From: Alphaproteobacteria bacterium
GTDB taxonomy: Bacteria > Pseudomonadota > Alphaproteobacteria > Acetobacterales > Acetobacteraceae
NCBI GenBank assembly: GCA_016869735.1
Contig: VGDL01000014.1
Coordinates: forward strand, 1-63,408
DNA length: 63,408 nt
Direction of reading: 5' to 3'
Every line of letters starts with the position of its first letter. Position 1 is the stretch's first letter. Shown piece by piece: positions 27,022 through 37,845 of this stretch. The notes under the pieces were generated by a model. The model made no database searches. It had not been told where the DNA came from and was given only the letters and a program-made list of their open reading frames with translations. A program made the translations under genes and the position numbers.

Positions 27022-28374
27022 ATGGATATGGCCGCCCTTTCCTTCCAAGGCTCTGGCTTGCATGCTGCCTATCGCGCCGGGCTATCGCCCGCTGCGGTGA
27101 TGGCCGAAGCCTTGCGTCGGCTGGAAGCCGCCAATGACCCTGGCATTTTCCTTGATGTGACACCGCCCGAGGCTGTGCAGGCCGCGATCAGCGCCCTGCC
27201 TGGCTTTGATCCGGTTGCGTATCCGCTATGGGGCCTGCCGGTGGCGGTGAAGGATAACATCGCTGTCGCGGGCCGCCCCATGACAGCTGCTTGCCCGGCT
27301 TTCAGCCATGTGCCGGCTGAGGATGCTGAAGTAGTGCGCCGCCTGCGTGCGGCTGGCGCCATCATTCTGGGCAAGACCAATCTTGATCAATTCGCGACTG
27401 GCTTGGTCGGCGTGCGCACCCCCTACCCCGTGCCCCGCAATGCGGCATCGGCTGATCATGTGCCGGGCGGGTCATCATCGGGTTCTGCGGTGGCTGTCGC
27501 GCGCGGGATTGTGTCGCTGGCGCTGGGCACCGATACGGCCGGTTCAGGGCGCGTGCCGGCAGCGCTGAATGGGATTGTTGGGCTGAAGCCTTCAGTCGGC
27601 GCGGTTTCCACGCGCGGTGTGGTGCCAGCCTGCCGCAGCCTGGATTGTGTTTCGGTGTTTGCGACCTGCCTGGATGATGCTTGGTCTGCGTTTCGCGCCA
27701 TGGCGGGTGAGGATCGCGCTGATCCTTTCAGTCGGGCGATTACCTGGTGTGAACCTGGTGTGGTGCCGGCGCGCATCGCGGTCCCGCGCGCGGTGGATAT
27801 ACATTTGGATGATGCCGCCGGGCGCGCGGCCTGGGCGGCGGCGCTCACTTTACTGCCTTCAGCCGCGGAAGCCGCGATTACGGACATGCTGAATGCGGCC
27901 AAGCTTTTATATGAGGGGCCTTGGGTTGCGGAACGCGCGGCGGCCTTTGGTGATTTCGCGCAGGGACATCCCGGCGCGCTGCATCCCGTGACGCAAAAAA
28001 TCATCGATGGCGCTGGTGGCTTCAGCGCAGTGGATGCCTTTCGCGGCACGTATAAGCTTGCCGAATATCGCCGCGTGGCCGAGGATTTCTTCGCCGCGCA
28101 TGAAGTGCTGGTGGTGCCATCCGTACCATGTTTCCCAACCCTCGCGGCGCTGGCGGCCGATCCCTTCGGGCCTAATGCTCGGCTTGGGGTTTATACCAAT
28201 TTCGTCAATCTGCTTGATCTGGCGGCGCTGGCGGTGCCGGGGCCGAAGCGCCCCGATGGGCTGCCCGCCGGTATTACGCTGATCGGCCCGCGTGGTTCAG
28301 ATGCCGCGCTGATGGCGCTTGCGCAGGCATTCACGCGCCGCGTGGCGGCAACAAAAAAGTCGGTGGCCGCATGA
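27022..28374 (+). CDS. atzF: allophanate hydrolase, amidase part
   Basis: Amidase-signature enzyme, 450 residues, equivalent to the N-terminal domain of AtzF, which deaminates allophanate (urea-1-carboxylate). The Ser-Ser-Lys triad region is visible: AVKDNIAV (about 75-82) and [15 protein letters not shown] with [13 protein letters not shown] (about 152-182). The C-terminal domain, normally fused, is a separate gene overlapping by 4 bases (ATGA). No urea carboxylase, biuret hydrolase or cyanuric acid gene is nearby, so the upstream source of allophanate is unknown. Confidence 0.88.
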
Positions 28375-28769
28375 TCGAAATTGTAGTTGTGGGCGCGCAT
28401 CTTTCTGGCCTGCCGCTCAATCATGAATTGGTAGCCGAAGGCGGCGTGCTGCGCCGCGCGGTGCTGACCGAGCCCTGCTACCGGCTTTACGCGCTGGCAG
28501 GTGGCCCGCCGCGCCGGCCTGGCTTGCTGCGTGTCGCGCCCGGGGCTGGTGCCGCAATTGCGACCGAGGTTTGGGCTTTGCCCGATGATGGCTTTGGCCG
28601 CTTTGTGTCGCGCATTCCCGCCCCGCTTGGCATTGGCACTTTGCTTTTGGCCGATGGCAGCCGGCCAAAAGGTTTTCTGGTGGAACCGGAAGGCTTGCAG
28701 GGCGCGGAAGAAATTTCCCGTTTTGGTGGCTGGCGCGCCTTCATGGCCAGCATCGCAACCCCCGCTTGA
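28371..28769 (+). CDS. allophanate hydrolase C-terminal domain as a separate protein
   Basis: A 132-residue protein matching the C-terminal domain of AtzF: it opens [18 protein letters not shown] and has CYRLYALAG and PAPLGIGTL. In fused enzymes this domain converts the amidase product and stabilises the dimer. The ATG overlaps the amidase stop, so the two chains are made in step and probably assemble. Because the split falls at the domain border and both ends are clean, this looks like a stable split gene and not a recent frameshift. Confidence 0.82.
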
Positions 28770-32252: not shown

Positions 32253-32254
32253 GC

Positions 32255-32279
32255 GGGCCCCGGATGGTCCTTCTTTTTT
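32255..32279 (+). terminator. possible terminator after the allophanate/ABC operon
   Basis: A short 5-bp stem (32255-32259 with 32266-32270, one wobble) is followed by TTCTTTTTT. The stem is short, so termination may be partial; it lies just after the CE4 gene and before iorA. Confidence 0.45.
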
Positions 32280-32416
32280 GATCTTTCAATTCATTTGCCG
32301 TTCAGGTTAGCCTTCCGATACAGATTCCTGATGTTCCTGAGACGGTCCTGGAATGCCTCATGCCGACCAAGCCGCCTTTGGGGTCAGGCATAACGGAATG
32401 GCAAGTGGGGGCAGAA

Positions 32417-32878
32417 GTGGCGAAACTCAATGTAAATGGCCGTGTGGTTGATATCCAGGTCGAAGAAGATACACCGCTGCTTTGGGTATTGCGCGAACAG
32501 CTTGGCATGACAGGCACGAAATATGGTTGCGGGGTCGCGCAATGCGGCGCCTGCACTGTGCATGTGGATGGTGCCGCCCTGCGCGCCTGCGCTATGCCGG
32601 TTTCAGCCTTCAATGAAGGCCAGAAGATCGTCACCATTGAAGGGCTTTCGCCCAATAGCAGCCACCCCATTCAGCAGGCCTGGCTTGCTTTGGATGTGCC
32701 GCAATGCGGCTTCTGCCAGTCCGGCATGATCATGGCAGCCAGCGCGCTGCTAGCGGCTAACCCCAAACCGACCGAGGCACAAATTCGCGAGGAAATGACG
32801 AATATATGTCGTTGCGGCACCTATAATCGCGTCATTGCCGGAATCCAGCGCGCTGCTGGCATCGGCACAAGCGGTTGA
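32417..32878 (+). CDS. iorA: isoquinoline 1-oxidoreductase-type small subunit, [2Fe-2S] protein
   Basis: A 153-residue electron-transfer subunit of a molybdenum hydroxylase. The plant-type [2Fe-2S] cysteines are in [17 protein letters not shown] and LRAC; the second cluster cysteines are in QCGFCQSGM and ICRCGTYNR. The GTG at 32417 gives the usual AKLNVNG beginning; an ATG at 32360 in frame would add 19 unrelated residues. It precedes iorB by 14 bases. IorA has no signal peptide and would be exported together with the Tat-targeted IorB. Confidence 0.88.
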
Positions 32879-32892
32879 GGGGGAGAAGCATC

Positions 32893-35088
32893 ATGAATGC
32901 CATCACAAACCCTTCCCGCCGTGGTTTGCTCGCGACGGTATCCTCAGCCCTTGGTGCCTTCACCTTCGGCTTTCATGCGCCTTTGGTGAAATCCGCCGCC
33001 GCGCAAGGCAGCGCTGGGGTGCCTGAAATCAATGTCTGGGTCGTGGTGCGGCCTGGTGACACGGTCGTGATCCGCATTGCGCGTTCGGAAATGGGGCAAG
33101 GCACGCTGACGGGCCTCGCGCAATTGGTTGCCGAGGAATTGGAATGCGATTGGTCCAAGGTGACCACGGAATACCCAACACCGGGGCAGAACCTTGCGCG
33201 CAACCGGGCCTGGGGGAATATGTCCACGGGCGGCAGCCGCGGCATTCGCGACAGCCATGATTATGTGCGCAAGGGCGGCGCTGCGGCGCGGATGATGTTG
33301 GTGCAGGCGGCGGCCAATGGCTGGGGTGTTGCAGCCGGCGAATGCAGCGCGGCCAATAGCATGATTACGCATGGCCCAAGCGGGCGCAGCACCAGCTTCG
33401 GTGCTGTGGCGGCGGCGGCGGCACGGCTGACCCCGCCCACCGATATTCCGCTGAAGGACCCGAAGAATTGGAAGATTGCCGGCAAATCAATTGCGCGGCT
33501 GGATACGGCGGAAAAGCTGAATGGCAGCCAAGTCTATGGCATGGATTTACGCCTGCCCGGCATGCTGAATGCGGCGATCCATGCCTGCCCGGTTTTTGGC
33601 GGCAAGATCAGCGCCATTGACAGCAAGGCAGCCGAAGCCATGCCCGGTGTGAAGCATGTGCTGCGCGTGGGTGACAATGCCGTGGCGGTGGTCGCTGATA
33701 CCTGGTGGCGCGCCAAAAAAGCGCTGGATGCGGTTAAGATCACCTGGGATGAAGGGCAGCATGCCAGCGCATCCTCCGCTGCCTTTGCCGAGGTGATCAA
33801 GGCCGGGCTGGATGCGCCCGAAGCGGCGGTCGGCAATCGGAATGGTGATGCGCGGGCAGCGCTGGTGGGCGCGGCCAAGCGCATTGAAGCGGTTTATGGC
33901 TATCCGCATCAGAACCATGCCTGCATGGAAGTGATGAACGCGACAGCGCTTTGGACGCCGGAGCGTTGCGAGGTTTGGACGCCAACGCAGAATGGTGAAG
34001 CGGCACTCGCTGCAACTGCCGAAGCCGCCGGCCTGCCGCCGGCGCGGTGTGAGGTGCATAAGATCCACCTTGGCGGCGGCTTTGGGCGGCGCGGCGCGGT
34101 GCATGATTGGGTGCGCCAGGCGGTCACGATTGCCAAGCAAATCCCCGGCACACCGATGAAGCTGATCTGGTCGCGCGAAGAAGACATGCTGCAAGGCCGC
34201 TTCCACCCGGTGACCATGTGCAAGTTGCAAGGTGGCTTGGATGCGCAGGGCAATCTGGTTGGTTTGCATATGCGCATTTCCGGCCAATCCATTGTGGCTG
34301 GTATTTTCCCGCAGAATATCCGTGACGGGCGCGACCCGGTAGCCTTCCAGGGGCTGAATGCCCGCGGCGGGGAAGCGGATATTGGTTATACCATTCCGAA
34401 TCTTCTGATTGATCACGCCATGCGCAACCCGCATGTGCCGCCGGGTTTCTGGCGCGGGGTGAACCTGAACCAGAACGCGATTTATCTGGAATGCTTCATG
34501 GATGAATTGGCCCATGCGGCGGGTAAGGACCCATTGGCGTTTCGTCGTGCGTTGATGGGCAATCACCCGCGCCATTTGGCGGTGCTGAACGCTGTGGCGG
34601 AACGCGTCGGTTGGGGAAATACCGCCGCGCCTATCAATGGCCAGCCAGTTTTCCGTGGCTTGGCGCAGACGCATGGCTTCGGCAGCTATGTCGCTGCCTG
34701 TGCGGAAGTTTCTGTCAGCGACACGGGTGACCTTAAGGTTCATCGCATCGTGGCCGCGACGGATTGCGGCCATGCGGTCAATCCGCAGCAGATTGCAATG
34801 CAGGTGGAAGGGTCCTTCGTCTATGGGCTTTCAGCCGCGCTGCATAGCGAATGCACAGTGAAAAATGGCAGGATCGAGCAGGCGAATTTCGATACCTATC
34901 AGGTGCTGCGCATGGATGAGATGCCGAAGGTTGAAACAATCATTCTTCAATCTGGCGGCTTCTGGGGCGGGGTTGGTGAACCCACCATCGCGGTCGCTGC
35001 CCCTGCGGTGCTGAACGCAATCTTCGCCGCGACCGGCAAGCGCGTGCGGGATTTGCCGCTGAAGCATGCTGACCTCAGGCGAGCGTGA
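32893..35088 (+). CDS. iorB: isoquinoline 1-oxidoreductase-type large subunit, molybdopterin protein
   Basis: Molybdenum hydroxylase catalytic subunit of the xanthine dehydrogenase family, 731 residues. It begins with a Tat signal (SRRGLLATVSSALGAFTF). Cofactor-binding segments include EMGQGTLTGLAQLVAEELEC, HLGGGFGRRGAVHDWV and GGVGEPTIAVAAPAV with the catalytic glutamate. Known relatives hydroxylate N-heterocycles or aldehydes; the substrate here is unknown. Its stop overlaps the GTG start of soxX by 4 bases, so it is coupled to the Sox genes. Confidence 0.9.
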   Translation: MNAITNPSRRGLLATVSSALGAFTFGFHAPLVKSAAAQGSAGVPEINVWVVVRPGDTVVIRIARSEMGQGTLTGLAQLVAEELECDWSKVTTEYPTPGQNLARNRAWGNMSTGGSRGIRDSHDYVRKGGAAARMMLVQAAANGWGVAAGECSAANSMITHGPSGRSTSFGAVAAAAARLTPPTDIPLKDPKNWKIAGKSIARLDTAEKLNGSQVYGMDLRLPGMLNAAIHACPVFGGKISAIDSKAAEAMPGVKHVLRVGDNAVAVVADTWWRAKKALDAVKITWDEGQHASASSAAFAEVIKAGLDAPEAAVGNRNGDARAALVGAAKRIEAVYGYPHQNHACMEVMNATALWTPERCEVWTPTQNGEAALAATAEAAGLPPARCEVHKIHLGGGFGRRGAVHDWVRQAVTIAKQIPGTPMKLIWSREEDMLQGRFHPVTMCKLQGGLDAQGNLVGLHMRISGQSIVAGIFPQNIRDGRDPVAFQGLNARGGEADIGYTIPNLLIDHAMRNPHVPPGFWRGVNLNQNAIYLECFMDELAHAAGKDPLAFRRALMGNHPRHLAVLNAVAERVGWGNTAAPINGQPVFRGLAQTHGFGSYVAACAEVSVSDTGDLKVHRIVAATDCGHAVNPQQIAMQVEGSFVYGLSAALHSECTVKNGRIEQANFDTYQVLRMDEMPKVETIILQSGGFWGGVGEPTIAVAAPAVLNAIFAATGKRVRDLPLKHADLRRA

Positions 35089-35537
35089 GGGCAGCGCGGT
35101 TTCTGGCAAGCCTGATGCTGGCCATCGCAATGCCTGCCATGGCGACGGCTGATGCAACGGTGCTGGCAGATGATGCGGTGGCGCAATCGCTCACGGGTAA
35201 CGCGGGTGATCCGCAGCGCGGGCGCGCCATCATTGCCGATCGGCAGAAGGGGTTGTGCCTGCTCTGCCATAGCGGGCCATTCCCTGAGGAACCGCTCCAA
35301 GGCAATCTGGCGCCGAGCCTGGAAGGTGCCGGCAGCCGCTGGAATGAAGGCCAGCTACGGCTTCGCCTGATGGACAATAAGCGCATTAATCCAGAGAGTA
35401 TCATGCCTGCCTATCATCGGATCGAAGGCTTGAATCGCGTGGGGGCCACCTGGCGTGACAGGCCGGTATTAAATGCGGCAGAGATTGAGGACGTGCTGGC
35501 CTTTCTGATGGGGCTGAAGGCGGAGAAGGCGCCATGA
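35085..35537 (+). CDS. soxX: SoxX, monohaem cytochrome c of the Sox system
   Basis: A 150-residue periplasmic protein with a signal peptide ending near ATADA. One haem site, CLLCH (about 58-62), with GDPQRGRAIIADRQKGLC before it and the distal Met region NPESIMPAYHRIEGLNRVG, matches SoxX. With SoxA it forms the cytochrome that oxidatively links thiosulfate to SoxYZ and passes electrons on. The GTG start lies inside the iorB end; its stop overlaps soxY by 4 bases. Confidence 0.9.
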   Translation: MRAARFLASLMLAIAMPAMATADATVLADDAVAQSLTGNAGDPQRGRAIIADRQKGLCLLCHSGPFPEEPLQGNLAPSLEGAGSRWNEGQLRLRLMDNKRINPESIMPAYHRIEGLNRVGATWRDRPVLNAAEIEDVLAFLMGLKAEKAP

Positions 35538-35971
35538 CGATCTCTCGCCGCATTTTGCTAGCCGCGCCGGGGGCGCTGTTGCTGCCGGCGACAGCGCGGG
35601 CGGATCAGCAAAAGCTTACGGCAGCCTTGCGGGAGTTCACGGGTGGTCAGCCAATACGCGAAGGGCGTATCAGGCTTGAAGTCTCGCCGCTTGTCGAAAA
35701 CGGCAATGCGGTGCCGATTTCGGTTGCGGTGGAATCACCCATGACGGCGGCGGATCATGTGCGCCGCATTGGCGTTTTCAATGAACGCAATCCGCAGCCC
35801 AATGTCATTACCGCGCAATTCGGCCCGCGATCAGGCCGCGCCTATCTTGCCACGCATATTCGCTTGGCAACTTCTCAGGCTTTGGTTGCGGTTGCAGAAA
35901 TGAGTGATGGCAGTTTCTGGTCGCAGCGCGTTGACGTGGTGGTCACCCTGGCCGCCTGCATCGAGGGTTAG
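35534..35971 (+). CDS. soxY: SoxY, sulfur carrier subunit with unusual C-terminus
   Basis: A 145-residue carrier with a Tat-like signal (TISRRILLAAPGALLLPATA). The immunoglobulin-like domain includes VENGNAVPISVAVESPM and AYLATHIRLATSQALVAVAEMSDGSFW in separate strands. In characterised SoxY the chain ends GGCGG, the swinging arm whose cysteine carries the sulfur. Here it ends TLAACIEG: a cysteine is present but the glycine arm is not. It sits 3 bases before soxZ, its partner. Confidence 0.85.
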   Translation: MTISRRILLAAPGALLLPATARADQQKLTAALREFTGGQPIREGRIRLEVSPLVENGNAVPISVAVESPMTAADHVRRIGVFNERNPQPNVITAQFGPRSGRAYLATHIRLATSQALVAVAEMSDGSFWSQRVDVVVTLAACIEG

Positions 35972-35974
35972 GCC

Positions 35975-36295
35975 ATGGCGCGTGTGCTGCTGCGGGTCCC
36001 GGCATCGGTGGAGAAAGGCGCGGTGATTGAAATGCGCGCGCTCATTCAGCACATCATGGAAACCGGCTATCGCCCGAATGCTGAAGGTGTGGTGCAAGCG
36101 CGCGATATCATCTGGAAATTCACCTGCCGCTATGATGGGGAGGTTGTCTTCAACGCAACCCTATCACCGGCCATAGCGGCCAATCCCTTCATCGCCTTTA
36201 CCACCGTTGCGACGCAATCAGGCCCCGTCAGCTTCACCTGGGAAGGTGATAACGGATTCAGACAGACCGAAACGCGCCATATTACCGTGACATGA
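35975..36295 (+). CDS. soxZ: SoxZ, partner of SoxY
   Basis: A 106-residue immunoglobulin-like protein with no signal peptide, exported with Tat-targeted SoxY. Family features: ARVLLRVPASVEKGAVIEMRALIQHIMETGYR at the start (read as two strands) and FTWEGDNG near the end. It stabilises SoxY as a heterodimer. The stop overlaps the soxA start by 4 bases. Confidence 0.92.
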   Translation: MARVLLRVPASVEKGAVIEMRALIQHIMETGYRPNAEGVVQARDIIWKFTCRYDGEVVFNATLSPAIAANPFIAFTTVATQSGPVSFTWEGDNGFRQTETRHITVT

Positions 36296-37044
36296 AGCGC
36301 ATCCTAATCGCGCTACTGGCTTGCTGTTCGGTGGCTGGCGCTGAAGAAAGGCGTTCCGGTCTTTTGGATATGCGCCCAGAAGCACAGGCGATGCAGCGCG
36401 ATGACAGCATGAACCCAGGCATGTTGTGGGTTTTGGATGGGGAAGCGCTGTGGGGCCGCAAGTCCGCACCCGCCGGGCAATCCTGCGCCGATTGCCATGG
36501 TGATGCGGCGGCCAGCATGCGCGGCGTGGCGGCGCGTTATCCCGCTTTTGATCAAGCAAGCGGTGGTGCGATTGATCTTGCCGGCCGCATCATCCAGTGC
36601 CGCGAAACACGACAGGGCGGCGCGACCTTGGCGCGTGAAAGCCAGGAATTATTGGCGCTGACCAGTTTTGTCGCGCATCAATCACGCGGCTTGCCGATTG
36701 CACCATCAGATGATGCCGGCATGCGCGCCACGCGTGACCTTGGGCAGCGCATTTACATGACGCGGATGGGACAGATCGATCTATCATGTGGGCAATGCCA
36801 TGATGATCATGCGGGGCGCAGGTTGGCCGGCAGCATCATTCCCCAGGGGCACCCGACCGGCTATCCAATCTATCGTCTGGAATGGCAGTCCTTGGGGTCT
36901 TTGCAGCGGCGCTTGCGCGGTTGCATGGTTGGCGTGCGCGCGGAGCCCTTCGCTTATGGGTCGGCTGAATTCATCGCCATTGAAGCCTATTTGATGGAAA
37001 GGGCACGCGGGATGGAAGTTGAAACACCCGCGATCAGGCCGTGA
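36292..37044 (+). CDS. soxA: SoxA, dihaem cytochrome c of the Sox system
   Basis: A 250-residue periplasmic cytochrome with a signal peptide of about 17 residues (MKRILIALLACCSVAGA). Two haem sites are present, CADCH (about 64-68) and CGQCH (about 166-170), and the active-site cysteine that takes the persulfide and ligates haem is in GCMVGVRAEPF (about 210-220). This is the dihaem form. All parts needed for SoxXA activity appear intact. It ends the iorAB-soxXYZA unit, 18 bases before the convergent exporter gene. Confidence 0.92.
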   Translation: MKRILIALLACCSVAGAEERRSGLLDMRPEAQAMQRDDSMNPGMLWVLDGEALWGRKSAPAGQSCADCHGDAAASMRGVAARYPAFDQASGGAIDLAGRIIQCRETRQGGATLARESQELLALTSFVAHQSRGLPIAPSDDAGMRATRDLGQRIYMTRMGQIDLSCGQCHDDHAGRRLAGSIIPQGHPTGYPIYRLEWQSLGSLQRRLRGCMVGVRAEPFAYGSAEFIAIEAYLMERARGMEVETPAIRP

Positions 37045-37062: not shown

Positions 37063-37845
37063 TCACAGCAGAAATCCCCGCACCAGACCAAACATTCCCG
37101 TGCAGAACAGAATGGTCAAAGCCACCTGCCGATAAAGCTGTTCATTGCCAAGGCCCTGGAAGGCGCGCCCGCCCACCCAGGCGCCAAGCACCATCAAGGG
37201 CAACAAAATCACCGCGCGAATGAGCGCCGTAACGCCGGCGACACCGGAGGCCATGACAATCGCAATCAGCAGAAACTGCGTCAGGAAGTAATAGGTGACG
37301 ATATTGGCGCGGTTCACTTGTGGCGGGTCATTGCCCGATAGCAGATAAAGCAGCACAGGCGGGCCGCCGACGCTGGTGGTGGCCATCATCGCCCCTGAAA
37401 CAGCACCAACCAGAATGGTGGCAGGCTGGCTTCTGCGGCCTTTGTAGCGCCAGCCGGTCCACATGATGACCACAAAAAAAACGATCACCGCGGAAACCGC
37501 TGTGATGATCGCATTCTTGTCCACATTCGCGAGCAACCAGACACCAAGCGGCATGGCAGCGCAGGCTGCGATGCTCATGGGCGTAAGCAGCTTCCAATCG
37601 GCCTGATGACGCACCTGTGGAAAAAGCTGCAAGGAGACGATCAATTCAATCGCCACCACCGTCACCACCATATCCGCCGATCCGAACAGCATGGCAAAAA
37701 TTGGCGCCATGAGCATTGCCGAACCAAAGCCGGCAAAGCCGCGCATCAGCCCCGCGACGAAGGTCACCCCAAGCGCCGCCCAGATATCGATCCCGTCAAA
37801 AATCGGCGCGAGATGGGCAAGGATATCGGGCACGGGATCAGGCAA
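37063..37845 (-). CDS. TauE/SafE family sulfite or sulfonate exporter
   Basis: A 260-residue TSUP-family membrane protein with about seven to eight helices. The two repeats typical of the family are visible: GLMRGFAGFGSAMLMAPIF (about 31-49) and VGAVSGAMMATTSVGGPPVL (about 145-164). These transporters move sulfite, sulfoacetate or similar anions. Facing the sox genes, export of an oxidised sulfur product is a sensible guess. The start drawn is a TTG that overlaps the upstream gene by 8 bases; a GTG at 37833 would give no overlap. Confidence 0.87.
   Translation of the reverse strand: MPDPVPDILAHLAPIFDGIDIWAALGVTFVAGLMRGFAGFGSAMLMAPIFAMLFGSADMVVTVVAIELIVSLQLFPQVRHQADWKLLTPMSIAACAAMPLGVWLLANVDKNAIITAVSAVIVFFVVIMWTGWRYKGRRSQPATILVGAVSGAMMATTSVGGPPVLLYLLSGNDPPQVNRANIVTYYFLTQFLLIAIVMASGVAGVTALIRAVILLPLMVLGAWVGGRAFQGLGNEQLYRQVALTILFCTGMFGLVRGFLL

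What the first reader, a model, noticed from the sequence alone, without database searches (positions are those of the whole stretch)
32417..37044. Molybdenum hydroxylase iorAB coupled to soxXYZA, with no soxB or soxCD
Seen: iorB overlaps soxX by 4 bases, soxX overlaps soxY, soxZ overlaps soxA; one plus-strand unit of six genes. Known: the classical thiosulfate pathway needs SoxXA, SoxYZ, SoxB (thiol sulfate hydrolase) and often the molybdenum enzyme SoxCD; IorAB normally hydroxylates N-heterocycles or aldehydes and passes electrons to a cytochrome. Inferred: either SoxXA serves as electron acceptor for IorAB, or IorAB, SoxXA and SoxYZ together process a carrier-bound organosulfur or heterocyclic substrate. 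I do not know a described system of this make-up. The facing TauE/SafE exporter fits an anionic sulfur product.
Basis: partly seen in the sequence, partly recalled or inferred. Interest (0 to 1): 0.75.

Follow-up and report, generated by a model that had tools for sequence, protein, structure and literature searches.

The report
Molybdenum hydroxylase with Sox carrier module
A widespread but unexplained bacterial gene module pairs an aldehyde-dehydrogenase-like molybdenum enzyme with a modified sulfur-carrier protein, and in this organism it also appears to hold the only copy of a cytochrome that the ordinary thiosulfate pathway needs.

Summary
The operon is real: iorA, iorB, soxX, soxY, soxZ, soxA, with the overlaps described. 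It is not unique: of 80 related loci, iorB accompanies the carrier in all 77 that reach far enough, and the whole set is together in 74 of 75 testable. An fccB flavoprotein is near in 44 of 59. The carrier belongs to NCBIfam TIGR04487 ("AACIE arm"), not to GGCGG-type SoxY. All six genes are under purifying selection. IorAB's closest solved relative is an aldehyde dehydrogenase.

"No soxB or soxCD" is true locally, not for the genome: contig C60 carries soxY(GGCGG)-soxZ-soxB-cyt-fccB-soxC-soxD but no soxXA, and the window's SoxX and SoxA are the genome's only ones over cut-off. All 8 soxB-bearing genomes of this lineage, and one other, have a single SoxA, so SoxXA probably serves two carriers. 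Against this, one genome has soxYZB and no detected SoxA.

SoxB is in 19 of 50 module genomes among relatives and 15 of 19 in a phylum draw, so it is neither required nor excluded. The make-up is in print for Starkeya novella (2013), whose authors doubted a function. The substrate is unknown; I favour a small thiol/aldehyde compound.

The parts
32417..32878 (+). iorA-like small [2Fe-2S] subunit of a xanthine-oxidase-family molybdenum enzyme, GTG start
   Evidence: Fer2_2 97.2 bits; best solved relative 8gy3_B, small subunit of aldehyde dehydrogenase, E 2.3e-47; GTG start conserved in the window and 6 aligned relatives
32893..35088 (+). iorB-like large molybdenum-cofactor subunit with twin-arginine-like signal; GGVGEP region present
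   Evidence: MoCoBD_1 and MoCoBD_2; best solved relative 8gy3_C, E 9e-82; GE[PS] in 75 of 75 near-full-length rows (that this Glu is the catalytic one is recalled); no NCBIfam equivalog reached its cut-off
35085..35537 (+). soxX, monohaem cytochrome c
   Evidence: TIGR04485 74.3 bits, cut-off 61; only SoxX over cut-off in the genome, two further matches are below it
35534..35971 (+). soxY paralogue, 'AACIE arm' carrier; arm AACIEG, carrier Cys142 (35957-35959), Glu144 (35963-35965)
   Evidence: TIGR04487 203.9 bits, cut-off 172; C142 and E144 invariant in 33 aligned rows, C-x-E in 84 of 84; in wider draws the Cys stays but the acid varies
35975..36295 (+). soxZ
   Evidence: Pfam SoxZ 82.8 bits; TIGR04490 70.5, just under the cut-off of 76
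36292..37044 (+). soxA, dihaem type (two CxxCH), active-site Cys kept (RGCMVGVRAEPF); only SoxA found in the genome
   Evidence: TIGR04484 223.4 bits; best solved relative 1h31_A, a dihaem cytochrome c; only SoxA over cut-off
32253..32416 (+). probable promoter/leader of the module, separating it from the upstream allophanate hydrolase/ABC/deacetylase genes (inference)
   Evidence: 164-base gap with a GTTC[AG]GGTTAGC element (32300-32311) kept in 7 of 7 aligned sequences (window and 6 relatives) among diverged sequence; consensus scan found no sigma-70-like site there and no excess of terminators over shuffles
37063..37845 (-). TauE/SafE-like transporter facing the module; neighbour in the window's lineage only, not part of the conserved module
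   Evidence: Pfam TauE 87.3 bits; found beside the module only in loci of the window's lineage

Best explanation
This is a conserved periplasmic oxidation module, separate from thiosulfate oxidation: IorAB (aldehyde-dehydrogenase-like molybdenum hydroxylase) + SoxXA + a SoxYZ carrier without the GGCGG arm, usually with an FccAB/SoxF-type flavocytochrome. Proposed working: SoxXA oxidatively couples a small sulfur compound (an organic thiol, or sulfide handled by FccAB) to Cys142 of SoxY; IorAB hydroxylates the aldehyde-type carbon that goes with it, either on the carrier or as a partner product; electrons leave through c-type cytochromes. In this lineage the genome's classical soxYZB-soxCD cluster has no SoxXA of its own, so the module's SoxXA must also load the GGCGG carrier if the Sox pathway oxidises thiosulfate at all. 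Shown: gene content, conservation, retained residues, selection, no second SoxXA found. Inferred: location in the periplasm, the chemistry, the substrate, and the sharing of SoxXA.
For: iorB accompanies the carrier in 77 of 77 testable of 80 loci, whole set in 74 of 75, and iorAB in 7 of 7 phylum-draw loci fetched whole. iorA/iorB order differs in L060, L073, L077 and fccB stands in three places (between iorB and soxX, after soxA, or upstream on the other strand), yet the set stays together. Carriers without GGCGG form one clade, 105 rows, support 100/99, apart from 24 GGCGG rows. Carrier Cys 84 of 84; SoxA dihaem 80 of 80. dN/dS 0.045 to 0.20 for the six genes against three close relatives. 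IorB/SoxY distance correlation 0.88 in 70 loci, 0 of 500 permutations as high; the permutation does not allow for the species tree. No SoxB found in 31 of 50 module genomes and 4 of 19 in the phylum draw. B. diazoefficiens: only soxY1 of locus I is essential for thiosulfate oxidation, soxY2 is not (passages of PMC5748708); that soxY2 is of this arm type is my inference (Bradyrhizobium sp. LHD-71 has the module). Shared SoxXA: 8 of 8 soxB genomes of this lineage have a single SoxA, against at least 2 over cut-off in 12 of 12 other soxB genomes of the set; G145 shows the same split. In a quick tree four soxB-linked SoxA fall among the module's SoxA.
Against: SoxB is present in 15 of 19 module genomes of the phylum draw, so a link with thiosulfate oxidation is not excluded. 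G147 (100% complete) has soxYZB-cyt-fccB-soxC and neither a SoxA at E 1e-30 nor a non-GGCGG match at E 1e-40, so lack of SoxXA need not mean sharing. The acid of the C-x-E arm is not universal: in the family draw 16 of 20 non-GGCGG arms have C-x-E, 2 C-x-D, 2 neither; in the phylum draw 14 of 19 C-x-E, 1 C-x-D, 4 C-x-I. S. novella barely expressed its second cluster on glucose, methanol or thiosulfate (PMC3797975). Of 121 flanking proteins none of the 25 commonest Pfam families points to a substrate. fccB is not local in the window and was not found in 15 of 59 fully flanked loci. L070 keeps iorAB and soxYZ without soxX/soxA.
Confidence: 0.45

Rival explanations
1. The window's soxXYZA is simply the displaced first half of an ordinary thiosulfate pathway completed by soxYZB-soxCD on C60; iorAB is a neighbour of no matter.
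For: The only SoxXA found in the genome is here, and soxB/soxCD are on C60. SoxB is found in 15 of 19 module genomes of the phylum draw.
Against: C60 has its own GGCGG soxYZ, so the AACIE pair is surplus; no SoxB was found in 31 of 50 module genomes; iorB is kept in 77 of 77 testable loci and is more conserved (median identity 0.69) than the Sox proteins (0.57 to 0.61).
Confidence: 0.2
2. SoxXA is only the electron acceptor of IorAB; SoxYZ is a passenger.
For: Aldehyde dehydrogenases of this kind pass electrons to cytochrome c (recalled); in the window soxX directly follows iorB with no other cytochrome between.
Against: Carrier Cys kept in 84 of 84, SoxA active-site Cys in 79 of 80; many lineages also keep a separate small cytochrome beside fccB.
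Confidence: 0.15
3. SoxYZ here is a sulfur donor that restores the labile Mo=S ligand of exported IorAB (enzyme maintenance, not substrate carriage).
For: Xanthine-oxidase-family enzymes need a terminal sulfido ligand (recalled); related SoxYZ-like carriers sit beside other periplasmic dehydrogenases (PMC11237559, PMC12997753), though those use PQQ, not molybdenum.
Against: Many enzymes of this family work without SoxYZ (recalled); no direct test was possible.
Confidence: 0.1
4. The cluster has no functional significance, as its discoverers suggested for S. novella (while allowing for untested growth conditions).
For: Very low expression under the conditions tested (PMC3797975).
Against: dN/dS 0.045 to 0.20, retained active-site residues, presence in records labelled Alpha- and Betaproteobacteria and one labelled Rokuibacteriota.
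Confidence: 0.05

Closest known systems
Second sox cluster of Starkeya novella, soxX2Y2Z2A2F2 plus xanthine-oxidase-family molybdenum enzyme Snov_1975/1976 (PMC3797975)
   Same: Same components, no SoxB/SoxCD in the cluster; a complete Sox cluster elsewhere in the genome
   Different: S. novella has SoxAX in both clusters; here SoxXA was found once. SoxF/fccB is local there and on C60 here. Its sequences were not compared here.
Classical Sox thiosulfate-oxidising system (SoxXA, SoxYZ, SoxB, SoxCD)
   Same: SoxXA with active-site Cys, SoxYZ families and carrier Cys
   Different: AACIE arm in place of GGCGG; no soxB/soxCD in the cluster; a xanthine-oxidase-family enzyme where SoxCD (sulfite-oxidase family, recalled) would stand
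Molybdenum aldehyde dehydrogenase (PDB 8gy3)
   Same: Best solved match for both IorA and IorB, nearly full length
   Different: No dedicated multihaem cytochrome subunit in the window operon; soxX and soxA stand there instead
Quinoprotein dehydrogenase-associated SoxYZ-like carriers (TIGR04557; PMC11237559, PMC12997753)
   Same: A SoxYZ-type carrier tied to a dehydrogenase of small organic molecules
   Different: There a YZ fusion with SoxH and PQQ enzymes; here separate Y and Z with SoxXA and a molybdenum enzyme

Membership tests
TIGR04487 SoxY-related AACIE arm protein | Score over the curated cut-off of 172 bits | tested here: met
   203.9 bits
TIGR04487 SoxY-related AACIE arm protein | AACIE-type C-terminal arm | tested here: met
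   The protein ends AACIEG
Classical Sox thiosulfate system | SoxY with GGCGG arm | tested here: not met
   Window SoxY 89.1 bits to TIGR04488, cut-off 125; the C60 SoxY has GGCGG
Classical Sox thiosulfate system | SoxB in the same cluster | tested here: not met
   0 of 80 related loci hold a soxB or soxC match over 150 bits; own genome has soxB on C60 only
Classical Sox thiosulfate system | SoxXA with haem motifs and active-site Cys | tested here: met
Classical Sox thiosulfate system | Oxidises thiosulfate | not testable with these tools
   needs bench work
Isoquinoline 1-oxidoreductase (IorAB) | Closest characterised relative is isoquinoline oxidoreductase, which hydroxylates N-heterocycles | tested here: inconclusive
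   No IorAB among the solved matches; both subunits match aldehyde dehydrogenase 8gy3 best; activity not testable
Molybdenum aldehyde dehydrogenase (8gy3 type) | Molybdenum and 2Fe-2S subunits of this type | tested here: met
   E 9e-82 and 2.3e-47
Molybdenum aldehyde dehydrogenase (8gy3 type) | Own multihaem cytochrome subunit in the operon (feature recalled) | tested here: not met
   The operon's only c-type cytochromes are soxX and soxA
S. novella second sox cluster | soxXYZA + xanthine-oxidase-family Mo enzyme without soxB/soxCD | tested here: met
   against passages
S. novella second sox cluster | SoxF-like flavocytochrome in the cluster | tested here: not met
   Absent from the window operon; cyt and fccB are on C60
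S. novella second sox cluster | Sequence kinship of the proteins | not tested
   the S. novella sequences were not fetched

The most novel reading that the evidence does not exclude
A molybdenum hydroxylase of the xanthine-oxidase family works on a substrate tethered to the Cys of a dedicated SoxYZ carrier, loaded by SoxXA: a carrier-bound organosulfur oxidation pathway that runs without SoxB and SoxCD. In this lineage one SoxXA loads two different carriers, one for thiosulfate and one for the unknown substrate.
Probability: 0.27. Interest if true: 0.82.

Novelty: new variant of a known kind. Interest (0 to 1): 0.6.

Why it matters
If right, Sox chemistry is broader than thiosulfate: a widespread carrier system (Mesorhizobium, Methylobacterium, Bradyrhizobium, Roseomonas-like and other bacteria) serves an unknown, probably organic, sulfur substrate. 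Presence of soxX, soxA or soxY in a genome or metagenome would then not by itself mean thiosulfate oxidation. The single SoxXA beside two carriers gives a clean genetic test of how specific SoxXA is for its carrier.

Tried and rejected
Considered and rejected: (1) the module as a unique feature of this strain; (2) TauE and the upstream allophanate hydrolase/ABC/deacetylase genes as parts of the module: close matches to them stand beside it only in the window's lineage; (3) IorAB as a true isoquinoline enzyme: the best solved match is an aldehyde dehydrogenase; (4) a substrate clue in flanking genes: of 121 flanking proteins from 32 loci the commonest Pfam family is cytochrome c (6), then response regulators (5), and the 25 families shown name no common substrate (NCBIfam tally). 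A hint of 3-(methylthio)propionyl-CoA ligase (4 proteins that also match many other acyl-CoA ligase models) was followed in ten proteins that I picked by eye; none of them matched it, so it stands unexplained and was dropped; (5) a terminator at 32255: found by the scan, but the scan found no more sites than shuffles and the stretch is not conserved. (6) The acid of the C-x-E arm as a hallmark of the whole family: true of 84 of 84 near relatives, not of the wider draws.
Full report
WHAT IS THERE. SoxX and SoxA pass their curated cut-offs, SoxZ falls just short, and SoxY passes TIGR04487 'SoxY-related AACIE arm protein' while failing the true-SoxY model. SoxY ends in AACIEG, not GGCGG. IorA and IorB match the two subunits of a solved aldehyde dehydrogenase best (8gy3) and reach no NCBIfam equivalog cut-off. 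IorB and SoxY begin with twin-arginine-like signals (read from the sequence), so the system is most likely periplasmic (inference).

THE REST OF THE GENOME. SoxB (780.6 bits) is on contig C60 and SoxC (612.9 bits) near it; two SoxC-like matches below cut-off lie on C80 and C55. C60 reads soxY(GGCGG)-soxZ-soxB-cytochrome c-fccB-soxC-soxD, the FccB being a flavocytochrome c sulfide dehydrogenase relative. No soxX or soxA is there. Searches with two SoxA models and one SoxX model find only the window's copies over cut-off. The genome is 99.04% complete in 131 contigs, so a missed copy is unlikely, not impossible. 'No soxB or soxCD' is therefore a local truth.

IS THE ADJACENCY CONSERVED? A pattern scan found 148 relatives of the carrier, and the best 80 were kept. 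iorB is found in 77 of the 80; the other three (L020, L030, L047) end within 2 kb upstream. soxX, soxZ and soxA are all present in 76 of 80; of the four exceptions three end at a contig edge and L070 is a real one. Taken together, 74 of the 75 loci that reach far enough on both sides hold iorB, soxX, soxY, soxZ and soxA. None of the 80 holds a soxB or soxC match over 150 bits. fccB, usually with a small cytochrome, lies between iorB and soxX, or after soxA, or upstream; it is present in 44 of the 59 loci with more than 6 kb on both sides. The window's lineage is among those without it. A draw of 398 genomes of the phylum gave 20 with TIGR04487 matches at E up to 1e-45, the own genome included, 15 of them over the cut-off; soxX, soxZ and soxA stand beside all 20, with iorB or fccB at the edge of the stretch. 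Seven were fetched whole and all seven have iorAB.

DOES IT NEED SOXB? SoxB is in 19 of 50 module genomes among the relatives (50 of the 80 loci were given; completeness is not told for these; of the 31 without, 20 are not labelled as metagenome-assembled). In the own-family draw of 120 genomes, 20 have a non-GGCGG arm among the matches (arms read), with SoxB in 5 of those 20 and 15 of the other 100. Three more such arms surfaced only through SoxA (L158, L159, L168), so 20 is a lower bound. In the phylum draw SoxB is in 15 of 19: 10 of 10 in family f8, 4 of 4 in f66, 1 of 1 in f2, 0 of 4 in f13. So the module is neither bound to SoxB nor foreign to it; the 15 of 19 is a result against full independence.

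ONE SOXXA, TWO CARRIERS. Of the 12 nearest relatives (L002-L013) 7 have SoxB, and each of the 7 has exactly one SoxA; with the own genome that is 8 of 8. The 12 other SoxB genomes of the same set each have at least two SoxA over cut-off. Three of the 7 were fetched around SoxB and have the same C60-type cluster without soxXA. In the family draw, 16 of 20 SoxB genomes have SoxA on the SoxB contig; the exceptions are the own genome, G145, G147 and G163 (SoxA sought at E up to 1e-30). G145 (100% complete) has soxYZB and cyt-fccB-soxCD side by side, and its only SoxA elsewhere with soxX, soxY, soxZ and a piece of iorB at the edge of the stretch: a second case. G147 has soxYZB-cyt-fccB-soxC and no SoxA found, a counter-example; G163 is only 88% complete. 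Some SoxB operons of the family (G071, G095, G137) read soxX-Y-Z-A-B, with a SoxA that falls among the module's SoxA in a quick tree (many weak branches), and their SoxY groups with the C60 SoxY. The simplest history is loss of soxXA from the classical operon and reliance on the module's copy: inference.

CONSTRAINT. Carriers without GGCGG form one clade (105 rows, 100/99) apart from GGCGG (24 rows). In the near relatives the carrier Cys and the Glu two residues on are kept in 84 of 84. Further out the Cys stays in all 39 non-GGCGG arms read, but the acid does not: family draw 16 C-x-E, 2 C-x-D, 2 neither, of 20; phylum draw 14 C-x-E, 1 C-x-D, 4 C-x-I, of 19 (some read by eye because the script's pattern caught an earlier Cys). 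SoxA has two haem motifs in 80 of 80 and the active-site Cys in 79 of 80 (77 by pattern, 2 by eye; L032 is cut or shifted); IorB keeps GE[PS] in 75 of 75. dN/dS of the six genes against L005, L008 and L012 lies between 0.045 and 0.20. Median identity is highest for IorB (0.69) and IorA (0.68).

HOW IT PROBABLY WORKS. SoxYZ binds thiosulfate by an oxidative disulfide (stated in PMC5748708); SoxXA as the catalyst of that step is established knowledge. The loss of the flexible GG around the carrier Cys makes the SoxB and SoxC active sites poor partners (inference), and in most members an acid beside the Cys would disfavour an anionic cargo such as thiosulfate (inference, weakened by the C-x-I members). 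An aldehyde-dehydrogenase-like enzyme suggests a carbon substrate, FccAB a reduced sulfur one; together they suggest a small thiol/aldehyde compound. None of these steps is proved. The rivals are an ordinary split Sox system, plain electron transfer to SoxXA, sulfur supply to the molybdenum site, and no function.

WHAT IS IN PRINT. Starkeya novella's second cluster soxX2Y2Z2A2F2 with Snov_1975/1976 is the same make-up; its SoxAX and SoxYZ were not detected, one SoxF-like subunit was seen at low level, and transcripts were very low; the authors suggest no functional significance but allow for other growth conditions (passages of PMC3797975). PMC4003848 notes its type 1 dihaem SoxA (passages). 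In Bradyrhizobium diazoefficiens only soxY1 is essential for thiosulfate oxidation (passages of PMC5748708). PMC11237559 (section 24 part 1 and passages) links fused SoxYZ carriers with alcohol and methanol dehydrogenases; it removed SoxY without GGC, so AACIE was outside it. PMC12997753 (passages) describes such a carrier in the ped cluster. PMC4782131 (passages) reports flavocytochrome c beside SoxYZ in SAR324. The passages I saw of PMC11582611, PMC7565565 and PMC10708946 held nothing on the module. I found no paper that names the AACIE arm, surveys the module or gives its function, in searches of an open-licence library only; most subscription papers are not in it, and of most listed papers I saw only the listing.

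VERDICT. A real, conserved, functionally unknown variant of Sox chemistry. The gene make-up is already known for one organism; the breadth, the arm and the single SoxXA are what this report adds.

Noticed in passing
L082 (own contig C60), 98-4519, minus strand: Cas9-like (RuvC_III, HNH_4), Cas1 and Cas2 genes (Pfam) lie about 2 kb upstream of the classical sox cluster.
   Followed up: partly
window 27022-28769: Allophanate hydrolase is split into two overlapping genes (amidase part and C-terminal domain), also in relatives such as L005; beside it stand an SsuA-like ABC transporter and a PuuE-like deacetylase. Possibly a urea- or ureide-type nitrogen pathway.
   Followed up: partly
L070 7252-10764: iorAB with a non-GGCGG soxYZ but no soxX or soxA found in the 20 kb locus: the one fully flanked exception of 80, useful for testing which parts are needed.
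   Followed up: no
L198 (G147, contig C305): soxYZB-cyt-fccB-soxC in a genome reported 100% complete, with no SoxA found at E 1e-30.
   Followed up: partly
L183-L186 (G490, G477, G243, G388; family f13): Carriers with an AACLIG/AACVIG arm (no acid), below the TIGR04487 cut-off, in four genomes that all lack SoxB; iorAB present in the two fetched (L192, L193). A sub-group worth separating.
   Followed up: partly
L190, L191 (G370, G547): Genomes of only 1.9 and 2.0 Mb (unnamed; the size suggests streamlined freshwater Betaproteobacteria, a guess) keep the module as well as SoxB, with no fccB seen in the 16 kb fetched.
   Followed up: partly
L109 21416-22150: A methanethiol S-methyltransferase (mddA) gene about 8 kb downstream of the module on a Methylobacterium plasmid; one case only.
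   Followed up: no
window 32300-32311: A GTTC[AG]GGTTAGC element kept upstream of iorA in the window and 6 relatives among diverged sequence; a possible promoter or regulator site.
   Followed up: no
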